64,000 nt of DNA from Candidatus Alloclostridium intestinigallinarum. GTDB lineage: Bacteria; Bacillota; Clostridia; Christensenellales; UBA3700. The stretch covers positions 62,001-126,000 of the forward strand of contig CAJFJA010000003.1 in assembly GCA_904382605.1 (NCBI GenBank), given 5' to 3'. Under the pieces are notes generated by a model. It searched no databases, had not been told where the DNA came from, and worked only from the letters and a program-made list of their open reading frames with translations. Positions within the stretch are counted from its first letter, which is position 1, and every line of letters starts with the position of its first letter. Both the position numbers and the translations under genes were made by a program. Below, one piece after another: positions 6,655 through 62,780 of the stretch.

Positions 6655-6930
6655 AGCGCACTGCGCTTCCGTCCCACGCTCCCGGCGGCTCGCCGCGCAA
6701 AGAAAACACTATCAAATAATACCTTTGTTATTTCAAGGCGGTTAGGGGGTGGAGCGTCCCACGCTCCCGGTGCGTTTGGTTGCGGCTTTTAACAAGGAAA
6801 AATTAAAGGCATTGCGAAGATATTAGCTTTGAAATTCCGCATTGTTCTTTCAAAGAGTAATCAGCCTGCGGCGGCTCGCCGCGGTGGAGCGCCACGCGCT
6901 CCCGGCTCGCCGCAGTCACGCGCTCCCGGT
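6655..6930. repeat. Cluster of GC-rich hairpin modules
   Basis: Contains three variants of a GGTGGAGCG...CGCTCCC hairpin (near 6655, 6749 and 6880), two GGCGGCTCGCCGC hairpins, and the linking text TAATCAGCCTGCGG at about 6857. The same modules recur near 9.0, 30.5, 34.8-35.4 and 61-62.8 kb. I see no gene in 6416-6945. Confidence 0.75.
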
Positions 6931-7889: not shown

Positions 7890-8684
7890 TTACGCGTTTT
7901 TCGATGAAAATTCGTCCTTTTCGGGCTTTTCCTCCGCCTTTTCGCCGCAGGTATCGTCCCTTTCGGAGCGCGCAGGGGTGTTTTCTCCGCCGTCCGCAAT
8001 CAGGTTACCGTCCGTATTTTCGGGAGCAGGGGCGGAATTTTCGCGTTTTTCCGCACTTTTTTCCGAGTCGGCAGTTTCGACGGAGCGGTTTTCTTTTTGC
8101 GGTCTGACGAGCAGAAGCGAGCCTACGTTAAAGCGCGCGGCTATCTTGTCCAGCCGTATTACATACGTGAGAAGAATTGCGATTGCACAGCCTATTACGC
8201 CCTGCAGAATGTCTATGGGAAGTTGCAGCGTCGCGCCGGCAAGGCGTGTTGCCGGGGAGTCGCCTTCGCCCCAGAACAGCACGTTCGTGCCGAAGTAACC
8301 CGTCGCCATGATAACGGCGGAAAGCACCATTGCGGCAATGCCCAGCGCTACCTGAAGAGAAATATGTTTGCGCGCGACTTTGGGAATTACGTATTTGATG
8401 AGCGCGCCGCACACCGCGCCTTCCACCGCCTTTATCACCAGGGTGAAGGCGAAGGTCGCGGGGAATACTATAAGGTCGGCAAGCATTGCGCCCAGTCCGC
8501 CCGCGATTGCCGCGACCGCGGGACCGAAAAGCGCGCCCGCGGTAAGCACCATAGCGTCTCCCAGATTTACGTAGGCGGAGCCGAGATTGATTCCGATAAA
8601 CGTGAATGCCATTACAAGTCCCGTCATAACGCCCGTTACGGCTATGCTCAGGACCACGCGCCTTGATTTTGCCACTTGTTTCAT
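7890..8684 (-). CDS. ribU: ECF transporter S component, probably for riboflavin
   Basis: Substrate-binding membrane subunit of an energy-coupling-factor vitamin importer; it would work with ATPase and T subunits encoded elsewhere. Hydrophobic helices fill about residues 10-190, with the S-component-like stretch YVNLGDAMVLTAGALFGP, and are followed by a hydrophilic, Glu- and Lys-rich tail of about 70 residues that is unusual for the family. The substrate is assigned from the FMN riboswitch directly upstream (8771-8897), a strong contextual sign of flavin transport. ATG follows CGGAGG. The symbol is given for function; sequence similarity to classical RibU was not tested. Confidence 0.8.
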   Translation of the reverse strand: MKQVAKSRRVVLSIAVTGVMTGLVMAFTFIGINLGSAYVNLGDAMVLTAGALFGPAVAAIAGGLGAMLADLIVFPATFAFTLVIKAVEGAVCGALIKYVIPKVARKHISLQVALGIAAMVLSAVIMATGYFGTNVLFWGEGDSPATRLAGATLQLPIDILQGVIGCAIAILLTYVIRLDKIAARFNVGSLLLVRPQKENRSVETADSEKSAEKRENSAPAPENTDGNLIADGGENTPARSERDDTCGEKAEEKPEKDEFSSKNA

Positions 8685-8760: not shown

Positions 8761-8770
8761 AAGCAAAGCT

Positions 8771-8897
8771 GTTTCTTTCCCGATCTGACTTTACAGGCGG
8801 TTGCGGAATCTCACCGCATCAACTGACGGGGCTGTAGGACTTGTCCGCTCTAGGCGGCATTACCTCCGGTCGGCTTAAAAGCCTGCCCAAAGAATAT
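8771..8897 (-). ncRNA. FMN riboswitch (RFN element)
   Basis: Minus-strand text matches the RFN pattern in order: TTTGGGCAGG, CCGACCGGAGGTAATGC, GCGGACAAGTCC, GATGCGGTGAGATTCCG, then TAAAGTCAGATCGGGA and GAAAGAAAC. Binding of FMN should favour the downstream terminator and switch off the transporter gene. Confidence 0.92.
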
Positions 8898-8909
8898 TTT
8901 GTTGAAATA

Positions 8910-8938: not shown

Positions 8939-9001
8939 GCACATTTGCGGAATTTACCCGTACCCAACCTCAGTAGAACACTTTAATCGTACTGCTTTCG
9001 G

Positions 9002-9103
9002 GCGGCGAGCCGCCGCAGGCTGATAATTCTACGAAGAAAGCAATTCGGCATTATTGCTCGGTTACTTCGCAGATTATCATGGGTGGAGCGCCACGCGCTC
9101 CCG
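9002..9103. repeat. Hairpin module, copy 1, nested in the MITE-like element
   Basis: Starts with GCGGCGAGCCGCC and ends with GGAGCGCCACGCGCTCC, two GC hairpins. Between them TGATAATTCTACGAAG is complementary to CTTCGCAGATTATCA. In the copy at 23.4 kb the site holds only about 10 unrelated bases. Confidence 0.75.
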
Positions 9104-9141
9104 CAATCTGTCGACTTGTTGTAGGTTACTACAACTGCGCG

Positions 9142-9243
9142 GCGGCGAGCCGCCGCAGGCTGATTACTCTGCGAAGAAAGCAATTCGGCATTGTCGCTTA
9201 GTTACTTCGCAGATTATCATGGGTGGAGCGCCACGCGCTCCCG
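9142..9243. repeat. Hairpin module, copy 2, nested in the MITE-like element
   Basis: Nearly identical to the module at 9002-9103 and in the same orientation. It replaces about 34 bp that are present in the 23.4-kb copy of the host element. Confidence 0.75.
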
Positions 9244-9440
9244 CTGAAAGCGAGGCATTTTACAACCCGACATATACACATATTTTATATTTCACTGTAA
9301 AATGTGTTCTACTGAGGTTGGGTACGGGTATGCGGAAGAAAAAATCCGCGCGGCAAAGCGCGGTGTCACCCGCTCCGCGGCGCACGAATATATTTGTATG
9401 TGCGAAAGTTTTGCCGCAATATTTGACACGGAGGTAGATT

Positions 9441-22207: not shown

Positions 22208-23386
22208 ATGGACGAAATAAAGCAAAAGGATAAAAAATACATCTTAGGCACTTACGGCAGATTCGATCTGCATATCGTGCGCGGAAGCGGCGCGGAGTGC
22301 GAGGACGAACAGGGCAAAAAGTATATCGACCTGGGCAGCGGCATAGGCGTGAACTGCCTGGGATACTGCGACGGCGGCTGGGTAAAGGCGGTTGAAAAGC
22401 AGCTGGAAACGCTCCAGCACACTTCCAACCTCTATTACACTACCCCCGGCGCGGAACTTGCCGAGGCGCTTTGCGAAAGGACGGGATATAAAAAGGTATT
22501 CTTCTGCAATTCGGGCGCGGAAGCGAACGAAGCGGCTATCAAGACGGCGCGCAAGTACTCCTTTGACAAGTACGGCGCAGGCAGGGATAAGATTATCACC
22601 CTTGACAAGTCCTTCCACGGCAGAACCATGGCTACGCTTACCGCCACCGCGCAGGAGGCTATGCACAACTATTTCTTCCCCTTCAACGAAGGCTTTGTCT
22701 ACTGCGGCAAGGATATAGAGGAGATAAAAAAGCAGGAAGGAGTCTGCGCCGTAATGCTGGAATTTATCCAGGGCGAGGGCGGCGTTATTCCGCAGAATAA
22801 GCAGTTTATAGCGCAGGTTTACGACTACTGCAAAGAAAGCGATATTCTGTTTATCGCCGACGAAGTGCAGACGGGCGTGGGCAGAACGGGCAAATTTCTG
22901 TGCAGCGAACATTACGGAGTGCACCCCGACGTAACCACTCTTGCCAAGGGGCTGGGCGGCGGCTTGCCGGTAGGCGCAATGCTGGTCGGCGAAAAGTGCG
23001 AAAACGTGATGGGCGCGGGCACCCACGGTTCCACGTTCGGCGGCAATCCCGTCGTGTGCGCGGGCGGAAAGTACGTGCTTTCCCGTATCGACGAAAAACT
23101 GCTTGAAGAAGTTGCCGCCAAGGGCGAATATATCAAATCGCGCCTTGAAGGAGTAAAGGGCGTTAAGAGCGTAAGCGGCTTGGGGCTTATGCTGGGCATA
23201 GAACTCGACGGCAAGAAGGCGGCGGACGTGGTGAAGGAGTGCATGGCAAAGGGCGTTATACCGCTCACGGCAAAGGACAGGGTGCGCCTGCTTCCCCCGC
23301 TTATTATCACCATGGAACAGCTGGCGCGTGCAATGGACGTGCTTATTCAGGTGCTACCCGTATCCAACCCCAGTAGAACACTTTAA
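22208..23386 (+). CDS. argD: Acetylornithine aminotransferase with element-derived C-terminus
   Basis: PLP-dependent class III aminotransferase that makes N-acetylornithine. The 392 residues include FFCNSGAEANEAAIK, the cofactor Asp in FIADEVQTG, and the PLP lysine Lys247 in TLAKGLGGG. The normal end of the family falls at about AMDVLIQVL. The last nine residues (PVSNPSRTL) and the stop codon are encoded by the left terminal repeat of the MITE-like element at 23355, which has replaced the native stop. The enzyme core is complete, so activity is probably kept. Confidence 0.95.
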   Translation: MDEIKQKDKKYILGTYGRFDLHIVRGSGAECEDEQGKKYIDLGSGIGVNCLGYCDGGWVKAVEKQLETLQHTSNLYYTTPGAELAEALCERTGYKKVFFCNSGAEANEAAIKTARKYSFDKYGAGRDKIITLDKSFHGRTMATLTATAQEAMHNYFFPFNEGFVYCGKDIEEIKKQEGVCAVMLEFIQGEGGVIPQNKQFIAQVYDYCKESDILFIADEVQTGVGRTGKFLCSEHYGVHPDVTTLAKGLGGGLPVGAMLVGEKCENVMGAGTHGSTFGGNPVVCAGGKYVLSRIDEKLLEEVAAKGEYIKSRLEGVKGVKSVSGLGLMLGIELDGKKAADVVKECMAKGVIPLTAKDRVRLLPPLIITMEQLARAMDVLIQVLPVSNPSRTL

Positions 23387-23570
23387 TCGTACTGCTTTCG
23401 GCATATTTGCACAATCTGTCGACTTGTTGTAGGTCACTACAACTGCGCGCCATCTCGCACAAATCTGCTCGAAACCAGTTACGCTGAAAGCAAGGCATTT
23501 TACAACCCGACATACAAACATATTTTATGTTTCACTGTAAAATGTGCTCTACTGAGGTTGGGTACGGGTA
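23355..23570. mobile_element. MITE-like element, short copy, fused to the end of argD
   Basis: 216 bp with terminal inverted repeats beginning TACCCGTA, about 24 of 27 positions matching between ends. It shares its text with 8955-9330 but lacks the two nested modules. Its interior (TTTGCACAATC...GCACAAATCTGCTCGAAA...TACGCTGAAAGC) also resembles the core of the 160-bp hairpin family. It encodes no protein. Confidence 0.8.
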
Positions 23571-23668: not shown

Positions 23669-23835
23669 GGCGGTGCCGTCGGGTGGCTTTGGAAAAGCGT
23701 TATTGACGCAGGTATTTTTGAGCAAATCCGTGCAATACGGAACGAAGGCGTAGCAGAGTTACGTCGAGCGACGAATTGTGCGGAGATGCCGAAAAGAGCG
23801 CGTCAAGAGCGTGTTTTCAAAGTCAGACGGCGGCG
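23669..23835. repeat. 160-bp hairpin-family element in the argF leader
   Basis: Inverted relative to the copies at 51408 and 56881. The core reads GAGCAAATCCGTGCAATACGG, GGCGTAGCAGAGTTACG, GAGCGACGAATTGTGCGGAG. Outer arms GCCGTCGGGTGGCTTTGG and CAAAGTCAGACGGC can pair with interruptions. It ends a few bases before the argF ribosome-binding site. Confidence 0.65.
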
Positions 23836-23854: not shown

Positions 23855-24757
23855 ATGAAACACTTGTTAAAAATGTCCGACCTCTCCGCTAAGGAGATTT
23901 CGGGTATTCTCAATTTGGCGGATCAGTTGAAATACGATAAAAAGCACGGCATTCCGCACACTTATCTGCAGGGTAAAACGCTGGGAATGATATTCCAGAA
24001 GGCTTCCACGCGCACGAGGGTGTCGTTTGAAGTGGGCATGTATCAGCTGGGCGGAAGCGCGCTGTTTTTGAGCAGTCACGACTTGCAGATAGGCAGGGGC
24101 GAACCCGTGGAAGATACCGCGCGTGTGCTTTCGCGCTATCTTGACGCCATTATGATCCGCACCTTCAAACAGCAGGAAGTGGAAGACCTTGCAAAGTACG
24201 GCAGTATTCCCATAATAAACGGACTTACCGACTACGCGCACCCCTGCCAGGTGCTGGCGGACCTTATGACCATACGCGAACGCAAAGGCTCGCTGGAAGG
24301 TCTGAAATTCTGCTATGTCGGCGACGGCAACAATATGGCGAATTCGCTGATAGTGGGCTGTCTTACCATGGGCATGAAAGTGGCAATCGCATGCCCCAAG
24401 GGCTTTGAACCCGCGCAGGACGTGCTCGATTTCGCGGTGGGCTACGGCGAAAAATTCCACCTTACCAATAACGTATACGAAGCGGCGGACGAAGCGGACG
24501 TCGTGTATACCGACGTATGGGCTTCCATGGGTCAGGAGAGCGAGGCGATTACCAGAAGAAAGGCTTTTGCCGGCTATCAGGTGAATGAGGACGTCATGAA
24601 GGTCGCGGCGCACGACGCCATGGTATTGCACTGCCTGCCCGCGCACAGGGGCGAGGAGATAACCGCCGAAGTTATAGAAAAGCACGGCGAAATTTACGAC
24701 CAGGCGGAAAACAGACTGCACGCGCAAAAAGCGGTGCTCGTCACCCTGATGAAATGA
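23855..24757 (+). CDS. argF: Ornithine carbamoyltransferase
   Basis: Makes citrulline from ornithine and carbamoyl phosphate. The 300 residues contain the carbamoyl-phosphate loop STRTR, HPCQ in DYAHPCQVLADLMT, and HCLPAHRG near the end. ATG 23855 follows AAAGGAGGAAT and gives the usual family N-terminus; an upstream in-frame start would add repeat-derived residues. It is parted from argD by about 470 bp holding two repeat elements, a probable late insertion into a once continuous operon. The stop overlaps the next gene (ATGA). Confidence 0.95.
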   Translation: MKHLLKMSDLSAKEISGILNLADQLKYDKKHGIPHTYLQGKTLGMIFQKASTRTRVSFEVGMYQLGGSALFLSSHDLQIGRGEPVEDTARVLSRYLDAIMIRTFKQQEVEDLAKYGSIPIINGLTDYAHPCQVLADLMTIRERKGSLEGLKFCYVGDGNNMANSLIVGCLTMGMKVAIACPKGFEPAQDVLDFAVGYGEKFHLTNNVYEAADEADVVYTDVWASMGQESEAITRRKAFAGYQVNEDVMKVAAHDAMVLHCLPAHRGEEITAEVIEKHGEIYDQAENRLHAQKAVLVTLMK

Positions 24758-25428
24758 TAAAAACGCAATTCACCGCGGGCGGCTTTCCCGTATATAAGGC
24801 GGAGGACGGAGATTATTCCGCCGTTTCCGCCTTTTTGAATACTTGCCGCAATAAACTTGACAGAATAGAATTTTTCTATCCTTACACGCCCGAAGAACTG
24901 AAAAGCGTAATATCGGGCGGCGGTTTTTTATGCGCCGTGGACGGGAAAAGGATAGTGGGCGCTTTCGCGCTGGATACGGACAAATCTTACGGCAAAATGC
25001 TTGCGGATAACGTAAAAGAGTGCACGCGCGGCACTCTTGCGCCTAAGTACGCCTTTGAAACCTCGGGACTTATGGTGGACGAAAACTACCGCAGGCGCGG
25101 CATGGCGGGCGATTTGGCTGACGCGGTAATTGCGCTGGGCGCACGGCTTGTTCCGGACGACTTTTTATGCGGAGTGGTACAGCTGGAAAACGTAGCGAGT
25201 ATGTCCACCTTCCTTTCAAAAGGCTTTGTGCTCGCGGGCGTGTATTCCATGGGCGGAGAGTACGACTTCGGCTATTTCGTCCGCCCCTCGCGCTCTCCTC
25301 TCACCGCGCGCGGAACAGCGGAAAGGGAAGTGCCTTTCCGCGCCATGTCCGAACATAAAAACGCGCTTGCAAGCGGCTTTGTAGGCGTAAAGATAATAGA
25401 CGGCGGAATCATATATCGCCAATTATGA
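24754..25428 (+). CDS. GNAT-family N-acetyltransferase
   Basis: A 224-residue protein whose middle part fits the acetyl-CoA-binding GNAT core (TSGLMVDENYRRRGMAGDLADAVIAL, containing the RRxGM-type pyrophosphate loop), preceded by the strand GKRIVGAFALDTD. Substrate unknown. It overlaps argF by 4 nt (ATGA) and so is translated with it; a link to arginine or polyamine metabolism is possible, but context is the only argument. It marks the right edge of the GC-rich backbone before the low-GC island. Confidence 0.75.
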   Translation: MIKTQFTAGGFPVYKAEDGDYSAVSAFLNTCRNKLDRIEFFYPYTPEELKSVISGGGFLCAVDGKRIVGAFALDTDKSYGKMLADNVKECTRGTLAPKYAFETSGLMVDENYRRRGMAGDLADAVIALGARLVPDDFLCGVVQLENVASMSTFLSKGFVLAGVYSMGGEYDFGYFVRPSRSPLTARGTAEREVPFRAMSEHKNALASGFVGVKIIDGGIIYRQL

Positions 25429-25468
25429 AATTTCGTTTAATACAGTAACTAAGAAAAAGAGGTAAAGT

Positions 25469-26251
25469 ATGAAAGTAGAAAAATATCGGGTATTAGGAGA
25501 ATTAATTGAGACAAATAAAAGACAATTTGTCATACCTGTATACCAAAGAAATTATGATTGGAGAAAAGATAATTGTAAGACATTATTTGACGATATTGTA
25601 AACGCTGTTGTAATGGACAGACTACATTTTGTCGGTTCGATTGTTTATGTAGATCAAGGGGAAGAGAATAAAATATATCGTTACCTAATAATTGATGGGC
25701 AACAACGCATAACTACTATTTTTCTTTTGCTTAAGTCATTATACGATGTAAGCGATGATGTAAATCTAAAAAATGAAATAAATAGTATGCTATTCAATAT
25801 AGATAGGTTTAACAATTTGAAGTTAACTGATCAAAACAAAATAAAACTTAAGCCGATTAAATCAGATAATGAGCAATTTATCCTGTTAATGAAAGGTGAA
25901 GTTGAGGCTATGAATAAATCATCAAATATTTATAGTAATTATGAATATTTAAAATCGCTTATTCGTAAAACAGTGCAGGGTGGAGAAGTAAGTTGTGAAG
26001 ATATTCTTGCAGGACTAAAGATGCTAACATCTGCAGTAATTATTCTTGATCCAAAAGAAGATAATCCGCAGGGCGTATTTGAGTCAATCAATTCTACCGG
26101 GCTTGAATTATCGTTGGCTGATTTAATAAGAAATTTTGTGTTAATGACAGATAAGGATCAAGAGAGATTGTTTGAGCAATATTGGTTAAAAATAGAACAG
26201 AATATTACTCTGCAGAATGTTTTTATGGACACAATTATGTCTTGCGTTTAA
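25469..26251 (+). pseudogene. Truncated DUF262 (GmrSD N-terminal-like) protein
   Basis: The 260 residues are the N-terminal part of a DUF262 protein, the nucleotide-hydrolysing half of GmrSD-type modification-dependent restriction enzymes. Landmarks are IPVYQRNYDW, LIIDGQQRITT, and VFESINSTGLELSLADLIRNF. Full-length relatives continue into a DUF1524 (HNH nuclease) domain, which is missing: homology ends after NITLQNV, and a short unrelated tail and stop follow. AT-rich codon use marks transferred DNA. ATG follows AAGAGG. It could still be expressed, but as a restriction enzyme it is broken. A possible far fragment lies at 29679-30068. Confidence 0.75.
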
Positions 26252-26469
26252 TCATAGATCTGTGTCCGCTTGACCTTCCGTTTCACAATTTCCTTGATCA
26301 GCTGCCCGTCTTCCGAATAGACGCTGCCGCCCGATACGCAACACATTCGAAGATATTTCAGAAGTTCCTTTTTGACTCGTGCACGATCGTAATCTCTATG
26401 GTTTTTGTCATACCATTTTTTCGATGATCTTCGCCCAATCCACAAATCAGGAACACCCCGCCTACGCTT

Positions 26470-26807
26470 TGATCCTTATCCTTGCAACACGCAAAACGAA
26501 GTGCGATTATCTGCATTATCGCCAAGAGCCTAGCAAACCTGAAACACGGAGGCGAGATGCTACATCATTGTGTGGGGCGAATGAACTACGACCAGCCATG
26601 CTACGCGAGGAATCGCTTATCTTCTTTATACGCAACATACAGGAACCGGACACTCCGTTCGTAACGGTCGAATACTCCTTGAAGAACATGAAAATCCTGC
26701 AATGTTACGGAGAACATGACAACAAGCCGAACAAAGATGTATTGCATTATGTCAACAAAGTATGGCTGCCTTATGCCAACAAAATACTCAAACGAATTGC
26801 CGCATAG
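26470..26807 (+). pseudogene. PcfJ-like protein remnant with frameshift
   Basis: Pieces of a PcfJ-like protein, found on conjugative elements, in two frames. One frame carries IICIIAKSLANLKHGGEMLHHCVG; the other carries IFFIRNIQEPDTPFVTVEYS and continues to the stop at 26807. In intact relatives these parts are continuous, so at least one frameshift is present near 26600-26625, and the N-terminal part is missing. The following small gene (26820) is a usual neighbour of such proteins as I recall. It indicates that the island descends from an integrative element. Confidence 0.6.
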
Positions 26808-26819
26808 GAGGAAGAAACA

Positions 26820-27107
26820 TTGGCAAACTATTTCAAAATCACAGCATATCACCCTGCCGAAAATCTCTCGATCATTATGGACTCAAATGGACTGTTTGAA
26901 AAGCTTTGGCAGTTCTCCGCCTTCATAGTATCCAAGGGCTTCAAAATCATTAAAGTGGGAAACAAAGAGAAGTTCAACGAAAGAGATCTGCCAAAAGCTG
27001 AATACGATAATGTCCACATTATACTTCGCGCATGCAAAAGCGGACTACCTAAAATCATGGGTAACCGCACCACAGTTGAAGGGAAAAGCTATACGGCTTT
27101 TAGGTAA
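26820..27107 (+). CDS. Small hypothetical protein of mobile-element type
   Basis: 95 residues starting with TTG at 26820, with AGGAGG well placed upstream inside the end of the PcfJ remnant. The sequence MANYFKITAYHPAENLSIIMDSNG...LWQFSAFIVSKGFKIIKV looks like a compact alpha/beta fold. I recall similar small proteins beside PcfJ-type genes on conjugative elements but cannot assign a function. No cysteine cluster, signal peptide or membrane helix is visible. It appears intact although its neighbour is degraded. Confidence 0.6.
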   Translation: MANYFKITAYHPAENLSIIMDSNGLFEKLWQFSAFIVSKGFKIIKVGNKEKFNERDLPKAEYDNVHIILRACKSGLPKIMGNRTTVEGKSYTAFR

Positions 27108-27131
27108 CAACAACTATTTGTTTTAGGGGTA

Positions 27132-27160
27132 TTGACATGTGTTTATTAAAGTGGTATAAT
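27132..27160 (+). promoter_or_regulatory. Perfect consensus promoter of the RiPP-like cluster
   Basis: TTGACA (27132-27137), 17 bp, TATAAT (27155-27160) preceded by GTGG. It lies 30 nt before the precursor ATG and should be strong and constitutive. Confidence 0.9.
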
Positions 27161-27190
27161 AAAGAAAATATTTTGTTGGGAGAACTCCAT

Positions 27191-27361
27191 ATGAAAGCAA
27201 TAGAATTAAAACCTGTTGAAGCTATGCAAATTGTTGCATCAAAATGCAATTGTGGTGCATGTAATTGTAACTGCGGTGCTGGTTCCGCTTGCATGAATAA
27301 ATGCATGTCAGGAGAAACAGTTGATTACAAGGATGCTCTTAAAGCCGTTTATTCCAAATAA
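27191..27361 (+). CDS. Cys-rich RiPP precursor peptide candidate
   Basis: 56 residues. Residues 1-18 form a leader-like stretch (MKAIELKPVEAMQIVASK); residues 19-38 hold all seven cysteines (19, 21, 24, 26, 28, 34, 38), with the inner text CNCGACNCNCGAGSAC; residues 39-56 form a Cys-free follower rich in charged residues. NCGA occurs twice. ATG follows GGGAG, 30 nt behind a perfect promoter. The next gene is a radical SAM/SPASM enzyme of the type that cross-links such peptides, often by thioether bonds. Comparable classes are ranthipeptides (SCIFF) and the seven-Cys peptides matured by CcpM-like enzymes; membership was not tested. No export or protease gene is visible. Confidence 0.75.
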   Translation: MKAIELKPVEAMQIVASKCNCGACNCNCGAGSACMNKCMSGETVDYKDALKAVYSK

Positions 27362-27378
27362 CTGTGGAATTGTACAAA

Positions 27379-27410
27379 ATTACTGCCGGATCAAATGGCA
27401 GTAATTTTTG
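27379..27410 (+). terminator. Attenuating hairpin between precursor and maturase
   Basis: ATTACTGCC (27379-27387) pairs perfectly with GGCAGTAAT (27397-27405), followed by TTTTGTTT. Its position suggests abundant precursor transcript with partial read-through into the enzyme gene, a common RiPP arrangement. Confidence 0.8.
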
Positions 27411-27423
27411 TTTGAGGTTTCTT

Positions 27424-28737
27424 ATGTTATCTAAATTTTGTTTTTTTTATAAAACATCAAAAGAATATTACATCGTATACAATAGCTTATTGTTTGAGCC
27501 TGTTATCATCAATACGTGTGAATACCTTAATTTAAAAAAGGGCAATTTAGAGTCATTTTCTGATGAAGAAATTGCTTTATTAAAACAAAAAGGTATTTTA
27601 ATAAAAGAAGAATCAATCGATGATCAGGCTGTTTTAAAATTAAAACAACATGTCAATTCTGCCATACAAGAAGGCATCTCTTTAATATATATAATTCCAA
27701 CAAACATCTGTAATTGGGCTTGTAAATATTGTTTTATAGGGCAACTTAATAATGCAAAAATAGAAATATCAAAATACACTATTGATAAAATTATAGATGA
27801 ATATTACAATCATTTGCTTAATCAGGGAAGAACTAGCGCAACCATAGTTTTCTATGGCGGTGAACCCCTGATTGCTTTTGATAAAATTAAATATGCCGTA
27901 GAATATTGCTATAAATATACTCAAATTCAATGGGATTTCGCTATTGTTACAAATCTAACATTATTAACGGAAGAAATTGTAAGTTTTTTAGAAAAATATA
28001 ATATTTCTGTCGGTGTTTCTATAGATGGACCTAAGGCGACAAACGATGTTAATAGAATTTTTAAAAATAGCACTCGCAGCGTTTATGACTGCGTAATGGA
28101 TAAAATTAAATTATTAAAGTCACATAAAATAAATATAGGATTATCAATTACTATTACAAATGAACTGCTAGATGATGCTGGTTTTTTATATTGGCTAAAA
28201 GATTTGGATGTTAAAGACATAAACTACAATTTGATGCATTTCACACACAAAACTAACGACTGGGGGGAATATTATAGGAAAGCTAGCGAATTTTTATTTA
28301 AATCGCATGAGTTTCTATTTCCTTATGGCATTGTAGATGATCGAATTCAACGCAAAATAAGAGCATTTGGCGCAAGAGAATTTAAATATAATGATTGCGG
28401 TGCTATAGGAGGGCATCAGTTATGTTTTTCCCCTAATGGAGATATTTCTGTTTGTCATGGTCTTTGGAATTCTACAGATCAAAAATGTGGCAATATTCTT
28501 TATAACTCTTTTGAAGATATACTTCAAAAATCGACATTCCGCAAATGGCAAAACAATCTCACTGTTAACAAAGAGCAATGCATAAATTGTCCAGCAATTT
28601 ATATTTGTGGTGGAGGATGCGCTATGCAAAGTCGAGATTTGTTCGGTGATTTTACTTGCATAGATGAGGCTTTTTGTATCCATACAAAAATCACATTAGA
28701 AAAATTGTTGGATAATCTTGTGAGAGACAAAACATGA
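27424..28737 (+). CDS. Radical SAM/SPASM peptide maturase
   Basis: 437 residues. Residues 1-75 resemble a small winged-helix peptide-binding (RRE/PqqD-like) domain. The radical SAM domain has the 4Fe-4S site CNWACKYC (Cys96, Cys100, Cys103), FYGGEPL and VSIDGP. The C-terminal SPASM domain, with auxiliary clusters, shows CGAIGGHQLCFSPNGDISVC, CINCPAIYICGGGC and closing cysteines. It probably installs cross-links in the Cys-rich peptide upstream; the bond type is unknown. ATG 27424 was chosen because an upstream in-frame start would lie before the attenuator hairpin. AT-rich codon use, like the rest of the island. Overlaps the next gene by 4 nt (ATGA). Confidence 0.88.
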   Translation: MLSKFCFFYKTSKEYYIVYNSLLFEPVIINTCEYLNLKKGNLESFSDEEIALLKQKGILIKEESIDDQAVLKLKQHVNSAIQEGISLIYIIPTNICNWACKYCFIGQLNNAKIEISKYTIDKIIDEYYNHLLNQGRTSATIVFYGGEPLIAFDKIKYAVEYCYKYTQIQWDFAIVTNLTLLTEEIVSFLEKYNISVGVSIDGPKATNDVNRIFKNSTRSVYDCVMDKIKLLKSHKINIGLSITITNELLDDAGFLYWLKDLDVKDINYNLMHFTHKTNDWGEYYRKASEFLFKSHEFLFPYGIVDDRIQRKIRAFGAREFKYNDCGAIGGHQLCFSPNGDISVCHGLWNSTDQKCGNILYNSFEDILQKSTFRKWQNNLTVNKEQCINCPAIYICGGGCAMQSRDLFGDFTCIDEAFCIHTKITLEKLLDNLVRDKT

Positions 28738-29597
28738 AAACAAAAAGAGCGTTACTGTTTGATTTATTGGCTAAAAACATCTCACTATTGAGGTGTCCAA
28801 TATGCATGTCTGAGCTAAGCTATAATAACGATAGTCTCATTTGTAGCAAGCGACATTTATTTGATATATCAAAAAAAGGTACTGTTTTACTACATAAAAA
28901 GTACCAAAAGAAAATTGATGGCATTTATACTAAAGAATTATTTGAAAACCGTAGATTTTTTATTAAGGCTGGATTTTATACGGAAATTTATAATTATATT
29001 AGTGATTTAATTTTTGGAAACAGCAACAATCCAAAAATTCTGGATTTAGGATCTGGCGAATGTTCACACTTGCAAAGAATTAAAAATAATAGGGATATTA
29101 CAGCAATAGGTATTGATTTATCATACGATGCCATAAATTTGGCTACTGATTATCTCGTTGATGGCATATTGCCTATTTGTTGTGATTTATTTAATTTGCC
29201 GTTTAAAAATAAAGTATTCGATGTTGTATTAAATTTCTTGTCTCCAATAAACTCTTTTGAGGTAGGTCGAATATTGAAAGATGATGGAATTATAATTAAA
29301 GTAATTCCTACAAAAAACTATTTAAAGGAATTGCGCTTATATTTAGGATTCCGAGAATATTCAAAAGAGGAAGAAATTCTATCAAATTTACAAGAGCATT
29401 ATTCGATTACCTCTATTGAAAGAATCGAAAATATAAAACCTTTAACTTTAGAAACTGTCAATTCTTTATTCTATATGACCCCAATGACAAATCACAATGA
29501 AAATATTATTAAAAGTATAAATAATGCAAATTTCGATCAAATCACTATTTCATTAGACATTGTCTTGTTGAGGAAAAAGCATATTCAAGTCCAATAA
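28734..29597 (+). CDS. RlmA/TlrB-like methyltransferase with zinc ribbon
   Basis: 287 residues. The N-terminal zinc ribbon has Cys21, Cys24, Cys37 and His41, the same spacing as RlmA as I know it (3, 13, 4 residues), followed by a class I SAM domain with ILDLGSGE. RlmA enzymes methylate N1 of a guanine in 23S rRNA; the relative TlrB protects its host from tylosin. Here the gene overlaps the radical SAM gene (ATGA) and belongs to the RiPP-like cluster. It could give self-resistance by rRNA methylation, or methylate the peptide; both are inference. Similarity in the C-terminal half was judged weak by eye. Confidence 0.75.
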   Translation: MKTKRALLFDLLAKNISLLRCPICMSELSYNNDSLICSKRHLFDISKKGTVLLHKKYQKKIDGIYTKELFENRRFFIKAGFYTEIYNYISDLIFGNSNNPKILDLGSGECSHLQRIKNNRDITAIGIDLSYDAINLATDYLVDGILPICCDLFNLPFKNKVFDVVLNFLSPINSFEVGRILKDDGIIIKVIPTKNYLKELRLYLGFREYSKEEEILSNLQEHYSITSIERIENIKPLTLETVNSLFYMTPMTNHNENIIKSINNANFDQITISLDIVLLRKKHIQVQ

Positions 29598-29678
29598 GAC
29601 ACAAAGACGAACGTCAGTACTAAAACTGTCACAATCACTCTTTCCGTAAGGAGATTTTTAAAATAGAAAACCGGATAA

Positions 29679-30068
29679 AAAATCAGGTTCATAAATGAAG
29701 ATGAACGGAGACTGTCTATCGGAGAAGATTTTGACGCATCCGGAACAAAACCCACATCGTTCATCTTTTTGGGAGGTAATTCCAAGGTTTCATTGTATGC
29801 TGATTTATTGTCTCAAATGATGCAATTGTTTTATGAATGGGATAGTGAACTGTTTGAAAATTTAGCAAGACGAAATTATCAAATCACACAGTCAAGCCGT
29901 ACATACATTACGACAGATAACAGTTTATTGAGGAAACCGGGGCAAATAAAGGATACTGATATATATTTTGAAACAAATCTTAGCGCCAATAATATTATTT
30001 CATTTATCAGAAAAATTATGGAAGAATATCAATTTGATATGGATGAATTGATAATTTGCTTCCATTAA
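29679..30068 (+). pseudogene. C-terminal fragment of an unidentified accessory protein
   Basis: An open frame without a convincing start runs from after a stop at 29676-29678 to 30068. It encodes about 129 residues: LSIGEDFDASGTKPTSFIFLGG, then ADLLSQMMQLFYEWDSELFENL, ending DELIICFH. The pattern 'GTKPxSF..L' followed by 'LL......LY..D...F' resembles C-terminal domains seen on restriction-related proteins, from memory only. It may be the displaced end of the DUF262 gene broken at 26.2 kb, or another decayed gene. The 80 bp before it contain nothing I recognise. Confidence 0.35.
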
Positions 30069-30217
30069 TAAAATAATAGACGAGTATAGATTTAAAGTAG
30101 TAGCGGTATTACTGGAAATATAAGTTCTTAAATATGCGGCTTATATTTCCGCTACGATTATTATGCTATTGCTTGTAGCATAATAATAAATAATGAGTTG
30201 ACGATGTATTTATATGA

Positions 30218-30481
30218 TTATATATCGCTCAATCCCAATAAATAATCGGAAGAAACGTTCAGAAATTTGCTTATCTTGGCTATTTGCGTAGCTTTCGGCT
30301 CGCTTATGCCGTCACACCAATTGCAAACCGTCTGTTTGGAAAGCCCGCAACCTTTTGCCAGGGCATATTTGGTTATGCGCTTCGATTGCAACTCGTAATT
30401 CAGGCGTGTCAAGTGGTACTTGACAAGATTGTTTTCGGCAGTGAAGATAAATAAGCACGTACGATAGTAACTGACAACCAT
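30218..30481 (-). CDS. XRE-family helix-turn-helix regulator
   Basis: A small Cro/C1-type DNA-binding protein: YELQSKRITKYALAKGCGLSKQTVCNWCDGISEP is the helix-turn-helix, followed by ISKFLNVSSDYLLGLSD, the usual end of the domain. The start is uncertain. ATG 30481 gives 87 residues but lacks a clear ribosome-binding site, and its first 30 residues run through a copy of the TGTCAAG...CTTGACA palindrome, as if that repeat had replaced the native start. A second copy lies just upstream. The palindromes might be its own operators. AT-rich; last gene of the island. The 149 bp before it, down to 30069, show no gene. Confidence 0.65.
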   Translation of the reverse strand: MVVSYYRTCLFIFTAENNLVKYHLTRLNYELQSKRITKYALAKGCGLSKQTVCNWCDGISEPKATQIAKISKFLNVSSDYLLGLSDI

Positions 30482-30527
30482 ATTTTGACATAGCGCTATG
30501 AATAGGCATGTCAAGTAGTACTTGACA
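30407..30527. repeat. Two TGTCAAG palindromes and CATAGCGCTATG
   Basis: TGTCAAGTGGTACTTGACA (30407-30425) and TGTCAAGTAGTACTTGACA (30509-30527) flank the perfect palindrome CATAGCGCTATG (30489-30500). The first lies inside the reading frame of the XRE gene, the second upstream. Same family as the array at 34.4 kb. Confidence 0.8.
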
Positions 30528-30580
30528 GCGGCGGCTCGCCGCCAAGGCGGTTAAGGGGGCGTTCTACACTCCCGAATGGG
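30528..30580. repeat. GC-rich hairpin module
   Basis: GCGGCGGCTCGCCGCC followed by AAGGCGGTTAAGGGGGCG and a degenerate second hairpin (CGTTCTACACTCCCG). Same family as the modules near 6.7, 9.0, 35 and 61-62 kb. Confidence 0.65.
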
Positions 30581-30722
30581 AGGATTTTCACTTCACACGT
30601 AAGCGCAAAGTGTTTTGTGTACGCCAAATTACGCCATTTGAACGGATTTATCAAAAAACACTTTCGTCCGGCGCTTATAGGGCCGCTAGTCACTAATTGT
30701 CTTATATTGAGAGCATAAAGCC

Positions 30723-30751
30723 TTGCTATAATATATCTTGTGTGGTATAAT
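30723..30751 (+). promoter_or_regulatory. Promoter of the pfl operon
   Basis: TTGCTA (30723-30728), 17 bp, TATAAT (30746-30751) with GTGG before it. The leader of about 190 nt holds several short hairpins but no riboswitch I can name. A second TATAAT at 30908-30913 has no matching -35. Confidence 0.7.
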
Positions 30752-30870
30752 GTTTTTGCAATCAAGATATTGTGGTGTAAGGCGTTCTGCATAAATGCGG
30801 GCACACAATCGCCGAAAGTTATACGTCGGCTACCGCAAAAACGGAAAAACCGTTTGATACGGCCATATAA

Positions 30871-30884
30871 GTTGCAATTGCAAC
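30871..30884. promoter_or_regulatory. Perfect 14-bp palindrome upstream of pflB
   Basis: GTTGCAATTGCAAC, 61 nt before the pflB ATG. It shares both half-sites (GTTGC-N4-GCAAC) with the palindrome at the copA promoter (2671-2684), so one regulator might control both. Confidence 0.5.
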
Positions 30885-30944
30885 ATAGGCTTACGCCCGC
30901 GCGGCAGTATAATCTAGATGAAAATAAATTTGCGAGGTAAACAA

Positions 30945-33167
30945 ATGGAAGCCTGGAGAGATTTTGTCAAAGGCAATTGGAACAAGACAATTGACGTGCG
31001 CGATTTCATCAACCTGAACTACACGCCTTATGACGGCGACGCGTCATTCCTGAGCGGACCCACGGAGCGCACCAAAACGGTGTACGCCCATGTGGAAGAG
31101 CTTTTGAAGGAAGAGCACCGCAAAGGCGTTCTGGACGTGGATACGGAGCACGTATCTTCTATTCTCGCATTTCCTCCCGGCTATGTGGATAAGGACAGGG
31201 ACATCATCGTCGGTTTGCAGACGGACGCGCCTTTGAAGAGGGCGGTGAACCCGTTTGCGGGACTGAGAATGTGCAAGCAGGCGTGCGAGGCTTACGGCTA
31301 CAAACTTTCCGACAAAGTGCTGGAAGAATTCGCATACCGCACCACGCACAACGACGCGGTGTTCCACGTTTACAGCAAAGAGATGCGCACGGCGCGCCAT
31401 ACGGGCGTTATCACGGGTCTGCCCGACGCCTATGCGCGCGGCAGGATAATAGGCGACTACCGCAGAATCGCGCTTTACGGCATGGACTATCTTATTAAGT
31501 GCAAGCAGGAAGATAAGGAGGCTTTGCAGAAAAAGCCCATGACGGAAGAAAATATCCGCCTTATCGAAGAGCTTTACAAGCAGATAGACTTTATGAACAG
31601 GCTCAAAACCATGGCGGAGCAGTACGGCTATGACATTTCCCGCCCCGCAGAAACGGCGAAAGAAGCGGTGCAATGGCTGTACTTCGGCTATCTGGGCGCG
31701 GTGAAGGAGCAGAACGGCGCGGCGAACTCCATAGGCAGAATTTCCACTTTCCTCGATATTTACTTCGAGCGCGACCTGCGTGAAGGAAGGCTTACGGAAG
31801 AGCAAGCGCAGGAGATTATCGACGATTTCATCATCAAACTGCGCCTTGTACGCCACCTGCGCACTCCCGAATACAACGAAGTGTTCGCGGGCGATCCCAC
31901 CTGGGTCACCATGTCGGAAGCGGGCATGGCTTTGGACGGCAGGCATATGGTTACCAAAAACGCCTACCGCGTGCTGAATACTTTGTATAACCTCGGCTCG
32001 TCGGCAGAACCCAACATAACCGTTTTGTGGAGCGAACAGCTTCCCGAAACTTATAAGAAGTTCTGCGCCAAGGTTTCAATTGACACGGACTCCATTCAGT
32101 ACGAAAACGACGACGTGATGCGCCCCATTTACGACGACGATTACGCCATTGCGTGCTGTGTTTCGGCAATGAAAGTGGGTAAGCAGATGCAGTACTTCGG
32201 CGCGCGCTGCAACCTTGCCAAAGTGCTGCTCATGGCGCTCAACGGCGGCAGGGACGAGATAAGCGGCATACAGGTCGGACCCACGGGCAAGACCTTTAAG
32301 GAAGGGGTGCTCAACTACGACGAAGTTATCAAGGCGTTCAAAAAGTACTGCGCATGGATGGCTAAGCTGTATGTGAACACGCTCAACGTCATTCACTATA
32401 TGCACGACAAATACGCCTATGAAAGACTGATGATGAGCCTTCACGACACAAACGTGGAAAGACTTATGGCATTCGGTATAAGCGGCTTTTCCGTGCTTGC
32501 CGACAGCCTGAGCGCAATCAAGTACGCAAAGGTGAAGGCGGTAAAGGACGAACGCGGACTGATAACCGACTTCGTCACGGAAGGCGACTTCCCCAAGTAC
32601 GGCAACGACGACGACAGGGTGGACGACATTGCAAAGGCTATCGTGGAATACTTCTACGAGCAGCTGGACAAGCATAAGAAGTACCGCGGCGCAATTACCA
32701 CGCTTTCCATTCTCACGATAACGTCCAACGTCATGTACGGCAAAAAGACCGGCTCCACGCCCGACGGCAGGAAGAAGGGCGAGCCTTTCGCGCCCGGCGC
32801 CAACCCCATGCACGGCAGGGACAGCCACGGCGCTCTCGCTTCACTCAATTCGGTGGCGAAACTGCGCTATTCGTGCTGCCGCGACGGTATTTCCAACACC
32901 TTCTCGGTAACTCCGGAAGTGCTGGGCAAGGGCGAGGACGAAAGAGTGACGCGCCTTACGCATATGCTGGACGGCTACTTCGCGCAGGACGCACACCACC
33001 TGAACGTGAACGTGCTCAACAGGCAAAAGCTGATTGACGCGATGAACGACCCCACGCTGTATCCCAACCTTACAATCCGCGTGAGCGGATACGCGGTCAA
33101 CTTCAACAAGCTCAACCGCGAACAGCAGCAGGAAGTAATCAACCGCACCTTCCACGCAAAACTGTGA
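30945..33167 (+). CDS. pflB: Formate C-acetyltransferase (pyruvate formate-lyase)
   Basis: Glycyl-radical enzyme converting pyruvate and CoA to acetyl-CoA and formate; oxygen-sensitive and so a marker of anaerobic life. The 740 residues have the catalytic pair Cys404-Cys405 in AIACCVSAM and the radical Gly715 in [12 protein letters not shown] 30945 follows GCGAGG and starts the family's usual N-terminus; an in-frame ATG at 30918 lies upstream. The stop overlaps the activase start (TGATG), so they are coupled. Confidence 0.96.
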
Positions 33168-34386: not shown

Positions 34387-34730
34387 GAGTTTTAACAGGT
34401 TTGTCAAGTACTGCTTGACAAGGGTATTTTTGTTCCACAGTTTTAACAGTCTTGTCAAGTACCACTTGACGCGCTATTTTTTGTTAAAAGTTTTAATAGT
34501 GTTGTCAGGTACTGCTTGACACGCTACTTTTTGTTAAAAGTTTTAACAGGCTTGTCAGGTACTGCTTGACAAGGGTATTTTTTGTCACAGAGTTTTAACA
34601 GTCTTGTCAGGTACTACTTGACAAGAATATTTTTGTTGCACAGTTTTGACAGTCTTGTCAAGTACCACTTGACACGCTACTTTTTGTTAAAAGTTTTAAC
34701 AGTCTTGTCAGGTACTACTTGACAAGATTA
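34387..34730. repeat. Seven tandem ~50-bp repeats, each with a 19-bp palindrome
   Basis: Palindromes of the form TGTCARGTACYRCTTGACA begin at 34402, 34453, 34503, 34553, 34605, 34656 and 34706, i.e. every 50-52 bp. They are linked by AGTTTTAACAG and TATTTTTTGTT-like text. Both arms are conserved; changes sit mostly in the centre or create G-T pairs. It is not CRISPR: the intervening text is repeated too, and no cas gene is present. Confidence 0.9.
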
Positions 34731-34828
34731 TTTTTGATAGTAAGTAAAATGGTAATCAAGTAAAAAGCATTACGGAGAGGTACACCGCAATACTTTTTTT
34801 GACACTTCAAGGCATGACCGGGGGGGCG

Positions 34829-51408: not shown

Positions 51409-51569
51409 TGTCCGCAGTATCCGCGGCAAAACGCTTTGATAGCAATCTTTTCGCCTCCTTTGCACAACGCCTCGCTCGACGTAGCGCTGCTACGACTTCA
51501 CTCGGTGTTGCGCAAATGCGTACAAAAATCTTTGCTCTGAAAACGCTTTACCGCGGATACTGCGGACAC
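51408..51569. repeat. 160-bp hairpin-family element abutting the hemW stop
   Basis: Outer arms begin GTGTCCGCAGTATCCGCGG and are perfectly complementary over 19 bp, continuing with AAAACGCTTT-like pairs. The core is TTTGCACAACGCCTCGCTCG, ACGTAGCGCTGCTACG, GTGTTGCGCAAATGCG. The arms differ entirely from those of the copies at 56881 and 23669, while the core is shared. Confidence 0.8.
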
Positions 51570-51946: not shown

Positions 51947-51976
51947 TTGTCGTTTTCAGCATAATTGTGTTATAAT
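51947..51976 (+). promoter_or_regulatory. Promoter implying a leaderless transcript
   Basis: TTGTCG (51947-51952), 18 bp, TATAAT (51971-51976). The -10 ends 6 nt before ATG 51983, the same geometry as the kinase promoter at 7846-7874, and no ribosome-binding site precedes the ATG. Confidence 0.6.
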
Positions 51977-51982
51977 AAACTT

Positions 51983-56880: not shown

Positions 56881-57390
56881 AACCCGTCCCCGTGCCCGGA
56901 AAAATCCTTTGAGCGTGATCTTTCCGGCACCTTTGCGCAATACCTCGCTTGACGTAGCGCTGCTACGACTTCGCTCCGTATTGCGCAAATCTGCCCGAAA
57001 ACCTCTACGCTGAAAGGCTTTCCCCGAACCCGTGTACGGGTTCCGTCCCCGTGTCCGGCAAAATCCTTTGAGCGTGATCTTTCCGGCACCTTTGCGCAAT
57101 ACCTCGCTCGACGTAGCGCTGCTACGACTTCGCTCCGTATTGCGCAAATCTGTCCGAAAATCTCTACGCTGAAAGGCTTTCCCCGAACCCGTGTACGGGT
57201 TCCGTCCCCGTGCCCGGCGAAATCATTTGAGAGTGATCTTTCCGGCACCTTTGCGCAATACCTCGCTTGACGTAGCGCTGCTACGACTTCGCTCCGTATT
57301 GCGCAAATCTGCCCGAAAATCTCTGCGCTGAAAGGCTTTCGCCGAACCCGTGTACGGGTTCTGTCCCCGCGTCCGGCGAAATCATTTGAG
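56881..57390. repeat. Three tandem copies of the 160-bp hairpin element
   Basis: Units of about 160 bp begin near 56884, 57043 and 57203, with a fourth partial start at 57361. Each has the core TTTGCGCAATACCTCGCT, GACGTAGCGCTGCTACGAC, CGTATTGCGCAAATCTG, then ACGCTGAAAGGCTTTC, and they are joined by the palindrome GAACCCGTGTACGGGTTC. The outer arms (CCGTCCCCGTGCCCGG) are unlike those of the other copies. The array starts 3 nt after the transporter stop. No gene lies in 56879-57451. Confidence 0.9.
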
Positions 57391-57451
57391 CGCGGGAGAG
57401 GAGTATATATATTGTATTTAAGCCGGAAAACGGCGCAGATAAGGAGAAGAT

Positions 57452-60894: not shown

Positions 60895-62780
60895 TTCGGG
60901 AGCGTGGAACGCTCCGCCAATTGACCTCTTTGCAATATCATACTGTAAAACAAAGTTTGCGCTTCGCTATGGTTTTGACGGCTCTTGCTTGAGGCTCGGT
61001 TTTCCCTCTTTTTGCGGTCTGTTTATCAGGTAGCGCGCCGTCCGTTACCGCAAAAATTCACCCTTTCCGCCCTTACGGGAAAATCCGCACAGCGAATTTT
61101 AGAGGTTACGCTCGCAAAAGCGCGGTTTTGCTTCGCTTTTATTTACAATATAAAGCATTGCAGAGAAAAAAGTTTTTATATATTCTTATATAACGCAAAA
61201 TGTGAAAGTATCGTTTACCAAAATTCTTGGTATCGACATATATGGCAATTTTTATCAATCTGTCCACTATAGTGGACACTTCATTTATAAAAGAAAGTTA
61301 ACTAATATAAAGCAAAGTATTGCGGAGATATTAATTTTGAAATTCAGTTTTGCTACTTCAAAGAGTAATCAGCCTGCGGCGGCTCGCCGCGGTGGAGTGT
61401 CCCACGCTCCCGGTTCGCCGCTGTCCACTTTAGTGGACACTTTATTTATGAAAGTAAGTAAACAAGCCGATACCAAGATTTTTGGTAAAAGATAGTTTTC
61501 TATCCATAGAGAATAAATTAGAGACAAAGTATTGCGAAGAAAATAGATCTAAGATTTTCTTTTGATAATTCACGGCGGCTCGCTGCGGTGGAGCGCTACG
61601 CGCTCCCGACTCGCTGCTGTTAGTTACTACTTGACAAGATTATTCTTGATAGTAAGTAAGACAGGCTTGTCAGGTACTGCTTGACAAGAGTATTTTTGAC
61701 AGTAAGTAAGATAGATTCGTCAAGTACTGCTTGACAAGGTTATTTTTGATAGTAAGTAAAATGGTAATCAAATAAAAAGCATTACGGAGAAGAAAAGCCG
61801 TAACTTGGTGCAATGTTACTGCACGGCATAATCAGGGGTGGAGTGTCCCACGCTCCCGGCTCGCTGCGGTTTTGCTTCGCTCGTAATTACACTTGGCTGA
61901 TTATATAGTCATATAAAATACTCATCATAAATAGTCTGTCCACTAAAGTGGACACTTTATTTATGAAAGTAAGTAAACAAGCCGATACCAAGATTTTTGG
62001 TAAAAGATAGTTTTCTATCCATAGAGAATAAATTAAAGACAAAGTATTGCGAAGAAAATAGATCTAAGATTTTCTTTTGATAATTCACGGCGGTTAAGGG
62101 GTGGAGCGTCCCGCGCTCCCAAGATTTTTGGTAAAAGATAGTATTCTATCCGCAGATAACAAAAAACAGAGAATTGCGGAGAAAAAGGAGTGAATTTCAG
62201 TTTTGTCACTTTGGAATATAATCAGCCTGCGGCGGCTCGCCGCGGTGGAGTGTCCCACGCTCCCGGTTCGCCGCTGTCCACTTTAGTGGACACATAATTT
62301 ATGAAAGCAATTAAACAAGTTGATACCAAGATTTTTGGTAAAAGACAGTTTTCTAGCCGCGTTTTGCATTTTTTGCTATCAATCCTGCAAAATCTTTAAT
62401 ATACTCTCTTTTATAATTTTTCCCACATAAAATAAAGAGTCATCAATTTGATGACCCCTCAGGTGTTGAACGTTTGGGCTGCCTATACAGCCTTGCTGCC
62501 GCTGCTATGGCGGTGCCAAAATCAGGTTTGTCGGGCTGCCTGTTCAGCCTTGCTGCCGCTGCTATGGCGGTGCCAAAATTAGGTTTACTTATCAACGCAA
62601 TATAATTATATTCTTCACTTTTTTGAAAAGTCAAGCCTATGAGTACCATTTTTCTTGTAAATAAGAGAGTAAAAGTATTGCGGAAAACCTTGAAATTCAG
62701 TATTGGCGCTTTGAAATATGATCAGCCTGCGGCGGCTCGCCGCGGTGGAGCGTCACACGTTGCCTCTGCCGCATGCAAAC
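60895..62780. repeat. Repeat field: mosaic of palindromes and GC hairpin modules
   Basis: Almost 2 kb without a convincing gene. It contains four TGTCCACTNNAGTGGACA palindromes (61261, 61422, 61937, 62275), four full and one partial TACCAAGATTTTTGGTA-type palindromes (61216, 61471, 61986, 62119, 62324), three TGTCAAG...CTTGACA copies (61618, 61668, 61718), and GC hairpin modules near 60900, 61375, 61573, 61835, 62095, 62225 and 62725. The blocks recur in a similar order, for example AAAGTATTGCGAAGAAAATAG between them, so the field grew by repeated insertion or duplication. Confidence 0.8.
62477..62592. repeat. Tandem duplication of about 57 bp
   Basis: GGCTGCCTATACAGCCTTGC... and GGCTGCCTGTTCAGCCTTGC... 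share nearly all of about 57 bp, including GCTGCTATGGCGGTGCCAAA. Each has small internal hairpins (GGCTG/CAGCC, CCGC/GCGG). Confidence 0.7.

What the first reader, a model, noticed from the sequence alone, without database searches (positions are those of the whole stretch)
8955..9330. Two hairpin modules nested in a MITE-like element, with the empty site preserved at 23.4 kb
The element occurs twice: 216 bp at 23355-23570 and 376 bp at 8955-9330. The larger copy differs by two same-oriented ~102-bp modules (9002-9103, 9142-9243) that replaced about 10 and 34 bp. This before-and-after pair shows that the GC hairpin modules move or are copied as units, apparently by replacement rather than clean insertion.
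Basis: seen in the sequence. Interest (0 to 1): 0.68.

Follow-up and report, generated by a model that had tools for sequence, protein, structure and literature searches.

The report
Hairpin modules nested inside hairpin transposons
In an uncultured gut Clostridia genome, a small hairpin-shaped mobile element exists in plain copies and in copies where pieces of its interior have been swapped for a second, independent hairpin module, and related species show the same kind of swap with other modules.

Summary
The 216-bp element at 23355-23570 and the 376-bp element at 8955-9330 are copies of one TA-flanked MITE; the long copy carries two same-oriented ~102-bp double-hairpin modules in place of 9-10 bp and 34 bp. 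They are two copies at different sites, not a before/after pair at one site. At least 43 loci in this 1.8-Mb MAG hold the MITE's left block. All four states of the two slots occur. The module-free interior recurs in two related species (15 of 21 complete copies there), so the empty form is ancestral. The module is an independent unit: its 5' end begins at the same base in more than ten contexts, and its GC cap occurs 107 times in the genome. Independent replacements support 'replacement, not clean insertion': a tandem pair of related core hairpins with one empty and one filled copy (13-14 bp lost, no duplication), and three interior layouts in a second species with other modules. The MITE itself moves cleanly (TA joins at three sites). 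The 8955 layout is shared by another copy, so it is not two fresh moves. Most likely mechanism (inferred): replicative capture of modules at hairpins. New variant of a known kind, near REPIN/BIME/BOX mosaics and mitochondrial GC clusters.

The parts
8955..9330 (+). 376-bp composite MITE: L - module - M - module - R, TA at both ends
8955..9001 (+). left block L with inverted end TACCCGTACCCAACCTCAGTAGAACAC
9002..9103 (+). slot-1 double-hairpin module; replaces 9-10 bp (CATATTTGC[A]) of the empty form
9104..9141 (+). middle block M (small hairpin TTGTAG-GTTA-CTACAA), kept between the modules
9142..9243 (+). slot-2 double-hairpin module, 93% identical to the slot-1 module; replaces 34 bp
9244..9330 (+). 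right block R with central hairpin and inverted end
23355..23570 (+). 216-bp empty (ancestral) form of the MITE, inserted at a TA in the 3' end of a class-III aminotransferase gene (argD-like)
23402..23411 (+). s1: the 10 bp present only when slot 1 is empty
23450..23483 (+). s2: the 34 bp present only when slot 2 is empty
6833..6904 (-). module-derived piece (5' half, minus strand) abutting a separate GC cap
56884..57392 (+). three tandem copies (159-bp period) of the related core hairpin, all module-free; core folds as one hairpin with tip CGTAGC-GCT-GCTACG
51424..51542 (+). another copy of the core hairpin
23754..23797 (-). weak core-hairpin match 184 bp downstream of the empty MITE
61314..62778 (+). 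mosaic of repeat bodies with alternative terminal caps (61421 and 61936 share a 158-bp body, 98% identical, but end in different caps)

Best explanation
The thing at 8955 is a composite of two kinds of repeat. The carrier is a TA-targeting MITE whose interior is a long imperfect hairpin; it belongs to a wider family of core hairpins in this genus. The cargo is an independent ~102-bp double-hairpin module with a GC cap at each end. Shown: the empty interior is ancestral, module ends are precise, the module replaces about 9-56 bp (or more) of a host hairpin without duplicating the target, the same kind of replacement has happened more than once, and filled copies are present at many sites. Inferred: the composite spread as an ordinary MITE and was reshuffled through its repeated modules; the module enters when replication or repair at an extruded hairpin switches to a module elsewhere, copies it between its two caps, and returns a short way downstream, so that part of the host hairpin is lost. 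Any role of a transposase for the module is not shown.
For: Ancestral empty form: homologous s1-M-s2 interior in 15 of 21 complete copies from two sister species; the other 6 carry different modules. All four slot states in the own genome: empty/empty (e.g. L058, L059), filled/empty (L046, L050), empty/filled (L034), filled/filled (L031, L032). Module 5' end at the same base GCGGCG... in >10 contexts and 3' end ...CGCTCCC in many. Tandem pair at L205: the copy with CTACGACTTCGTT(C) is empty, its neighbour has ~100 bp of module there, flanks nearly identical (196 of 212 aligned columns, unrelated tail included). Core hairpins L083/L194 (two related), L090, L202 and L200 also carry a module or module fragment near the tip. 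In the second species a 165-bp module replaces ~56 bp (L112, L113, L115, L116), a different one replaces ~48 bp (L120), and L121/L125 lack nearly the whole interior. Clean TA joins of the MITE: L058 by protein frame and a sister species, L051 and L109 by other repeat copies. Hairpins keep pairing while sequence changes: caps, inverted ends (2.27 vs 5.21 mismatches per 20, 0 of 10,000 permutations), core arms (15.8 vs 7.06, 16 of 22 best with their own partner).
Against: Relatedness inflates all covariation tests; in the own genome alone 3 of 10,000 permutations reach the observed value, and the cap extraction itself required at most 2 mismatches. MITE-borne modules are too alike for the tree to count events (26 of 31 inner branches open); the slot-1 junctions after L are nearly all identical, so slot 1 is probably one event. 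The slot junctions in the MITE are not at the hairpin tip, unlike those in core hairpins. MITE insertion sites show no general preference for hairpins (1652 of 10,000 permutations as high). Short-read type MAG: two copies hold Ns (L041, L060) and six loci lie at contig ends, so some layouts, above all the internal-deletion series L061-L067, may be assembly errors.
Confidence: 0.6

Rival explanations
1. The module is an ordinary transposon-like unit (REPIN type, or moved by an IS200-like HUH enzyme) that inserts into hairpins; the missing target DNA was deleted afterwards.
For: Defined ends, hairpin caps at both ends, high copy number; the own genome has one Y1 transposase gene (1 stop inside) and G002 has four matches. 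B caps contain GTGG.
Against: G003, which has 34 B caps and its own replaced MITEs, has no Y1 match (76% complete). Caps A and C lack a GTRG tag. No filled site examined keeps its full target, and L205 lost 13-14 bp although its flanks are otherwise nearly unchanged.
Confidence: 0.2
2. The filled form is ancestral and the short form arose by deletion.
For: Internal deletions are common in this family (L061-L067, L078, L079).
Against: The short interior is homologous to that of two sister species and to the core hairpins; a deletion could not recreate s1 and s2.
Confidence: 0.04
3. Homologous recombination or gene conversion between MITE and core copies spreads one old filled state; no further module moves occurred.
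For: Identical L|module junctions, mosaic layouts L033, L039, L043, L044, shared orientation in core hairpins.
Against: Modules in core hosts are far diverged; junctions sit inside host-specific sequence; the second species has different modules with different left junctions.
Confidence: 0.15
4. The layouts are largely short-read assembly artefacts of a repeat-rich MAG.
For: Ns in L041 and L060, contig ends inside elements (L032, L046, L052, L053, L054, L068).
Against: Filled forms recur with different inverted ends and in a separately assembled species; the 8955 copy lies inside a 164,598-bp contig with both flanks in the order of G003 and G004.
Confidence: 0.05

Closest known systems
Bacterial MITEs with TA target duplication (IS630/Tc1-mariner-like; family traits recalled)
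   Same: Short, non-coding, inverted ends, TA at both ends, clean joins at three sites
   Different: No DDE_3 transposase in any of 6 genus genomes; interior carries foreign double-hairpin modules by replacement
REPs, REPINs and BIMEs (PMC3116915 search listing only; PMC3733652 passages)
   Same: High-copy GC hairpins, paired ends, alternative complementary stem residues
   Different: Cap types A, B and C differ in sequence, no common GTRG tag, no dedicated RAYT shown; a body of variable sequence lies between the caps
BOX/RUP/SPRITE repeats of pneumococcus (PMC3049150 passages)
   Different: There BOX and RUP make target duplications; here modules replace host DNA
Yeast mitochondrial GC clusters and other organelle hairpin elements (PMC4478555 and PMC2800124 passages)
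   Same: Palindromic units that merge and shuffle; stems differ by complementary substitutions
   Different: Mitochondrial; the GC clusters are flanked by short direct repeats; here bacterial, with empty and filled copies and lost target DNA

Membership tests
TA-targeting MITE (carrier) | terminal inverted repeats, no coding capacity, short | tested here: met
TA-targeting MITE (carrier) | TA target duplication | tested here: met
   three sites: L058 frame and sister species, L051 and L109 joined flanks match other copies
TA-targeting MITE (carrier) | related autonomous IS630-type element in the genome | tested here: not met
   PF13358: 0 of 6 genus genomes; other transposase families not tested
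REPIN (module) | two copies of the same REP in inverted orientation | tested here: not met
   ends GCGGCG-type and GGAGCG-type differ
REPIN (module) | GTRG-like tag at the hairpin foot | tested here: not met
   only B caps contain GTGG; A and C caps do not
REPIN (module) | RAYT transposase | tested here: inconclusive
   Y1_Tnp in 2 of 6 genomes, one with a stop in the own genome; RAYT versus IS200 not resolved (one search failed)
Double-hairpin / GC-cluster type element (module) | GC-rich hairpins bounding a short dispersed unit | tested here: met
Double-hairpin / GC-cluster type element (module) | short direct repeats at the insertion site | tested here: not met
   none at L205, slot 1 or slot 2

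The most novel reading that the evidence does not exclude
A bacterial class of double-hairpin elements spreads without a transposase of its own: replication or repair at extruded hairpins switches to a module, copies it cap to cap and returns downstream, so hairpins grow by having parts replaced by other hairpins, and the results are carried around the genome by ordinary MITE transposition.
Probability: 0.3. Interest if true: 0.75.

Novelty: new variant of a known kind. Interest (0 to 1): 0.55.

Why it matters
How short hairpin repeats without their own enzyme arise, combine and spread in bacteria is largely open. A genus with empty and filled copies, shared ancestral interiors and precise module ends allows the steps to be ordered, and offers a testable case of spread by replacement instead of insertion.

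Tried and rejected
IS630-type transposase as the MITE's motor: PF13358 absent from 6 of 6 genus genomes. RAYT/REPIN: Y1_Tnp in only 2 of 6, absent from G003. MITE preference for hairpin loops: suggested by L120 and L156, but not significant (47 sites; 1652 of 10,000 permutations as high; before this count rows were dropped where the right end was wrongly anchored, the ends were not TA, flanks were short or a site was repeated). First inverted-end test was out of register by one base and was discarded; redone with 49 of 54 elements (L034, L040, L048, L050, L072 dropped for unclear ends). Counting module events on a tree: too little signal. Rfam: nothing at gathering score in the window and only sub-threshold microRNA matches for the core hairpins. 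I first read the right side of one L194 copy as an inverted left flank; it is the usual complementary arm with the core's 3' half missing. Literature: 'Caccalectryoclostridium' 0 papers; bacterial MITE-with-insertion search 2 papers, neither fitting by title and abstract start. I did not find replacement of hairpins by hairpin modules described, but only in searches of an open-access library, of which I read passages of four papers.

Full report
What is there. The window is positions 62001-126000 of contig C3 of a 1,797,866-base MAG (23 contigs, 98.27% complete). Neighbouring records are Clostridia MAGs, one named Candidatus Caccalectryoclostridium excrementigallinarum (that they are members of the same genus set rests on matching contig lengths with G003 and G001). 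The two elements are as described.

Copies and forms. I fetched 60 loci around matches and 5 more. Of these 65 loci, 43 hold the left block L (my count from the table): 17 have a module or part of one directly after it, 24 have s1 or an internal deletion and no module there, and L048 and L182 have other or very partial hairpins. The search scored only the best candidates (40 of 134; 40 of 62), so totals are lower bounds. Clean slot states: both filled L031 (the 8955 copy) and L032 (ends at a contig end); slot 1 only L046 (contig start) and L050 (module and right block shortened); slot 2 only L034 (right block cut short); L043 has L-s1-M-module-M-module end-R. L035, L037, L038 are L-module-R; L033, L039, L044 hold two overlapping modules. 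All can be derived from a doubly filled copy by recombination between direct module copies; this is inference.

Direction. The genus has 6 held genomes. G003 and G004 have their own copies: of 21 complete canonical elements, 15 have the module-free interior (236-238 bp as measured by the script) and 6 have other modules. Their interior (GCGCGATATGTCGTTTGTTGTAGGAGG.ACTACAACTGCGCGCCATCTCGCACAAAACTGAACGAAA) is clearly the same as M-s2 of the own genome. So the empty form came first.

The module as a unit. In one search the 5' end starts at GCGGCG (or a close variant) after many unrelated flanks: L049, L051, L081, L083, L084, L087, L088, L089, L090 and others; the 3' end is ...CGCTCCC. Caps of type GGTGGAGYGYCMCRCRCTCC (up to 1 mismatch) number 107 in the own genome, 56 in G002, 34 in G003, 3 in G004, 1 in G001, 0 in G005, against 0 for the backward pattern. 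Of 62 distinct caps in the fetched own-genome loci, 49 have perfect stems and the last pair is C-G 36 times, T-A 22, A-T 1, T-G 2, C-A 1 (the extraction allowed at most 2 mismatches, which favours pairing). Caps are exchangeable: 61421 and 61936 share 158 bp at 98% and then end in different caps, and L114 and L115 share a body but have GCAACG and GGAGCG caps.

Replacement. In MITE slot 1 the sequence TTTCGG-CATATTTGC-ACAATCTG becomes TTTCGG-module-(A or G)CAATCTG; in slot 2 a 34-bp stretch is gone. In G003 a 165-bp module sits between GCGGGC and GCGCCATC in place of ~56 bp (L112, L113, L115, L116), another module between CTTCCG and the same GCGCCATC in place of ~48 bp (L120), and L121 has lost nearly the whole interior (L125, at a contig end, shows the same right side). 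In L040, L049, L051 and L077 a further module stands in the place of R's central hairpin. The best pair is L205 on contig C3: two neighbouring core hairpins with nearly identical flanks, one with CTACGACTTCGTT(C), the other with ~100 bp of module there.

The wider family. The MITE interior resembles (70-73% over ~96 bp) a core hairpin; a core query gives 38 matches in the own genome, some of them the MITEs themselves, and three copies lie in tandem at 56884-57392. The core folds as one hairpin, z -5.0. In 22 core elements the flanking arms differ between copies but pair with each other: mean score 15.8 with the own partner against 7.06 with others, own partner best in 16 of 22 (tandem copies share arms, which lowers this count). 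Inverted ends of 49 MITEs differ from their own partner at 2.27 of 20 positions on average, against 5.21 under permutation, 0 of 10,000 as low; own genome alone (28) 2.14 against 3.03, 3 of 10,000; G003/G004 (21) 2.43 against 6.1, 0 of 10,000. Relatedness contributes to these differences.

How the MITE moves. At L058 joining the flanks with one TA restores a frame ending IQVLGG*, which lines up with KEVIGE* of the G003 gene and its downstream DNA. At L051 and L109 the joined flanks match other repeat copies. So MITEs land in modules as well as modules in MITEs. No IS630-type transposase was found, and insertion sites show no general hairpin preference.

Mechanism. Shown: ancestral empty form, precise module ends, loss of host DNA, repeated occurrence, filled copies at many sites. 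Inferred: spread of the composite as a MITE, and entry of the module by template switching or break repair at an extruded hairpin. An RNA route is also possible; the authors of PMC4478555 (passages seen) favour RNA-mediated ligation and retrotransposition for shuffling of yeast GC clusters. I could not test this.

Known relatives. [quoted passage not shown] yeast GC clusters merge and shuffle and are flanked by AG or ACT direct repeats (PMC4478555); sponge hairpin elements differ by complementary substitutions (PMC2800124); GTAG REPs have alternative complementary stem residues and were reported from Proteobacteria, Cyanobacteria, Chloroflexi and the PVC group (PMC3733652). Double-hairpin elements of fungal mitochondria are known to me from memory and from mentions in those papers only.

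Caveats. The MAG bears marks of short-read assembly: L041 and L060 contain Ns, and L032, L046, L052, L053, L054 and L068 lie at contig ends. The series of internal deletions L061-L067 should not be trusted without long reads.

Noticed in passing
8768-8899 (-): FMN riboswitch match (57.9 bits, below the 66.2 gathering score, E 2e-12) upstream of an ECF riboflavin transporter S-component gene (7893-8684, -); the 8955 element lies just beyond it.
   Followed up: partly
23355-23386: The MITE supplies the last codons and the stop (PVSNPSRTL*) of the aminotransferase gene, in place of the GG* end seen when the flanks are joined.
   Followed up: yes
56884-57392: Three tandem 159-bp units, each with a core hairpin, just upstream of the ORF starting at 57452.
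   Followed up: partly
34396-35260 and 61612-61753: Arrays of another short palindromic repeat (TTGTCAAGTACTGCTTGACAAG type), also found after block M in L036 and L042.
   Followed up: no
52992-53303: 39-bp tandem repeat, apparently within an open reading frame (51965-53362, +).
   Followed up: no
24001-32000: Stretch of low G+C (0.39-0.42 against about 0.54), possibly acquired DNA.
   Followed up: no
L119:130-445: In G003 a ~110-bp unit made of what looks like a gene's start region plus a capped module is repeated three times in tandem.
   Followed up: no
L061-L067 (whole elements): Series of MITE copies with intact ends and different internal deletions sharing a nearly constant right breakpoint; real or assembly artefact.
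   Followed up: partly
L131:1369-1683 (-): Single Y1 transposase match of the own genome, with one TGA inside.
   Followed up: partly
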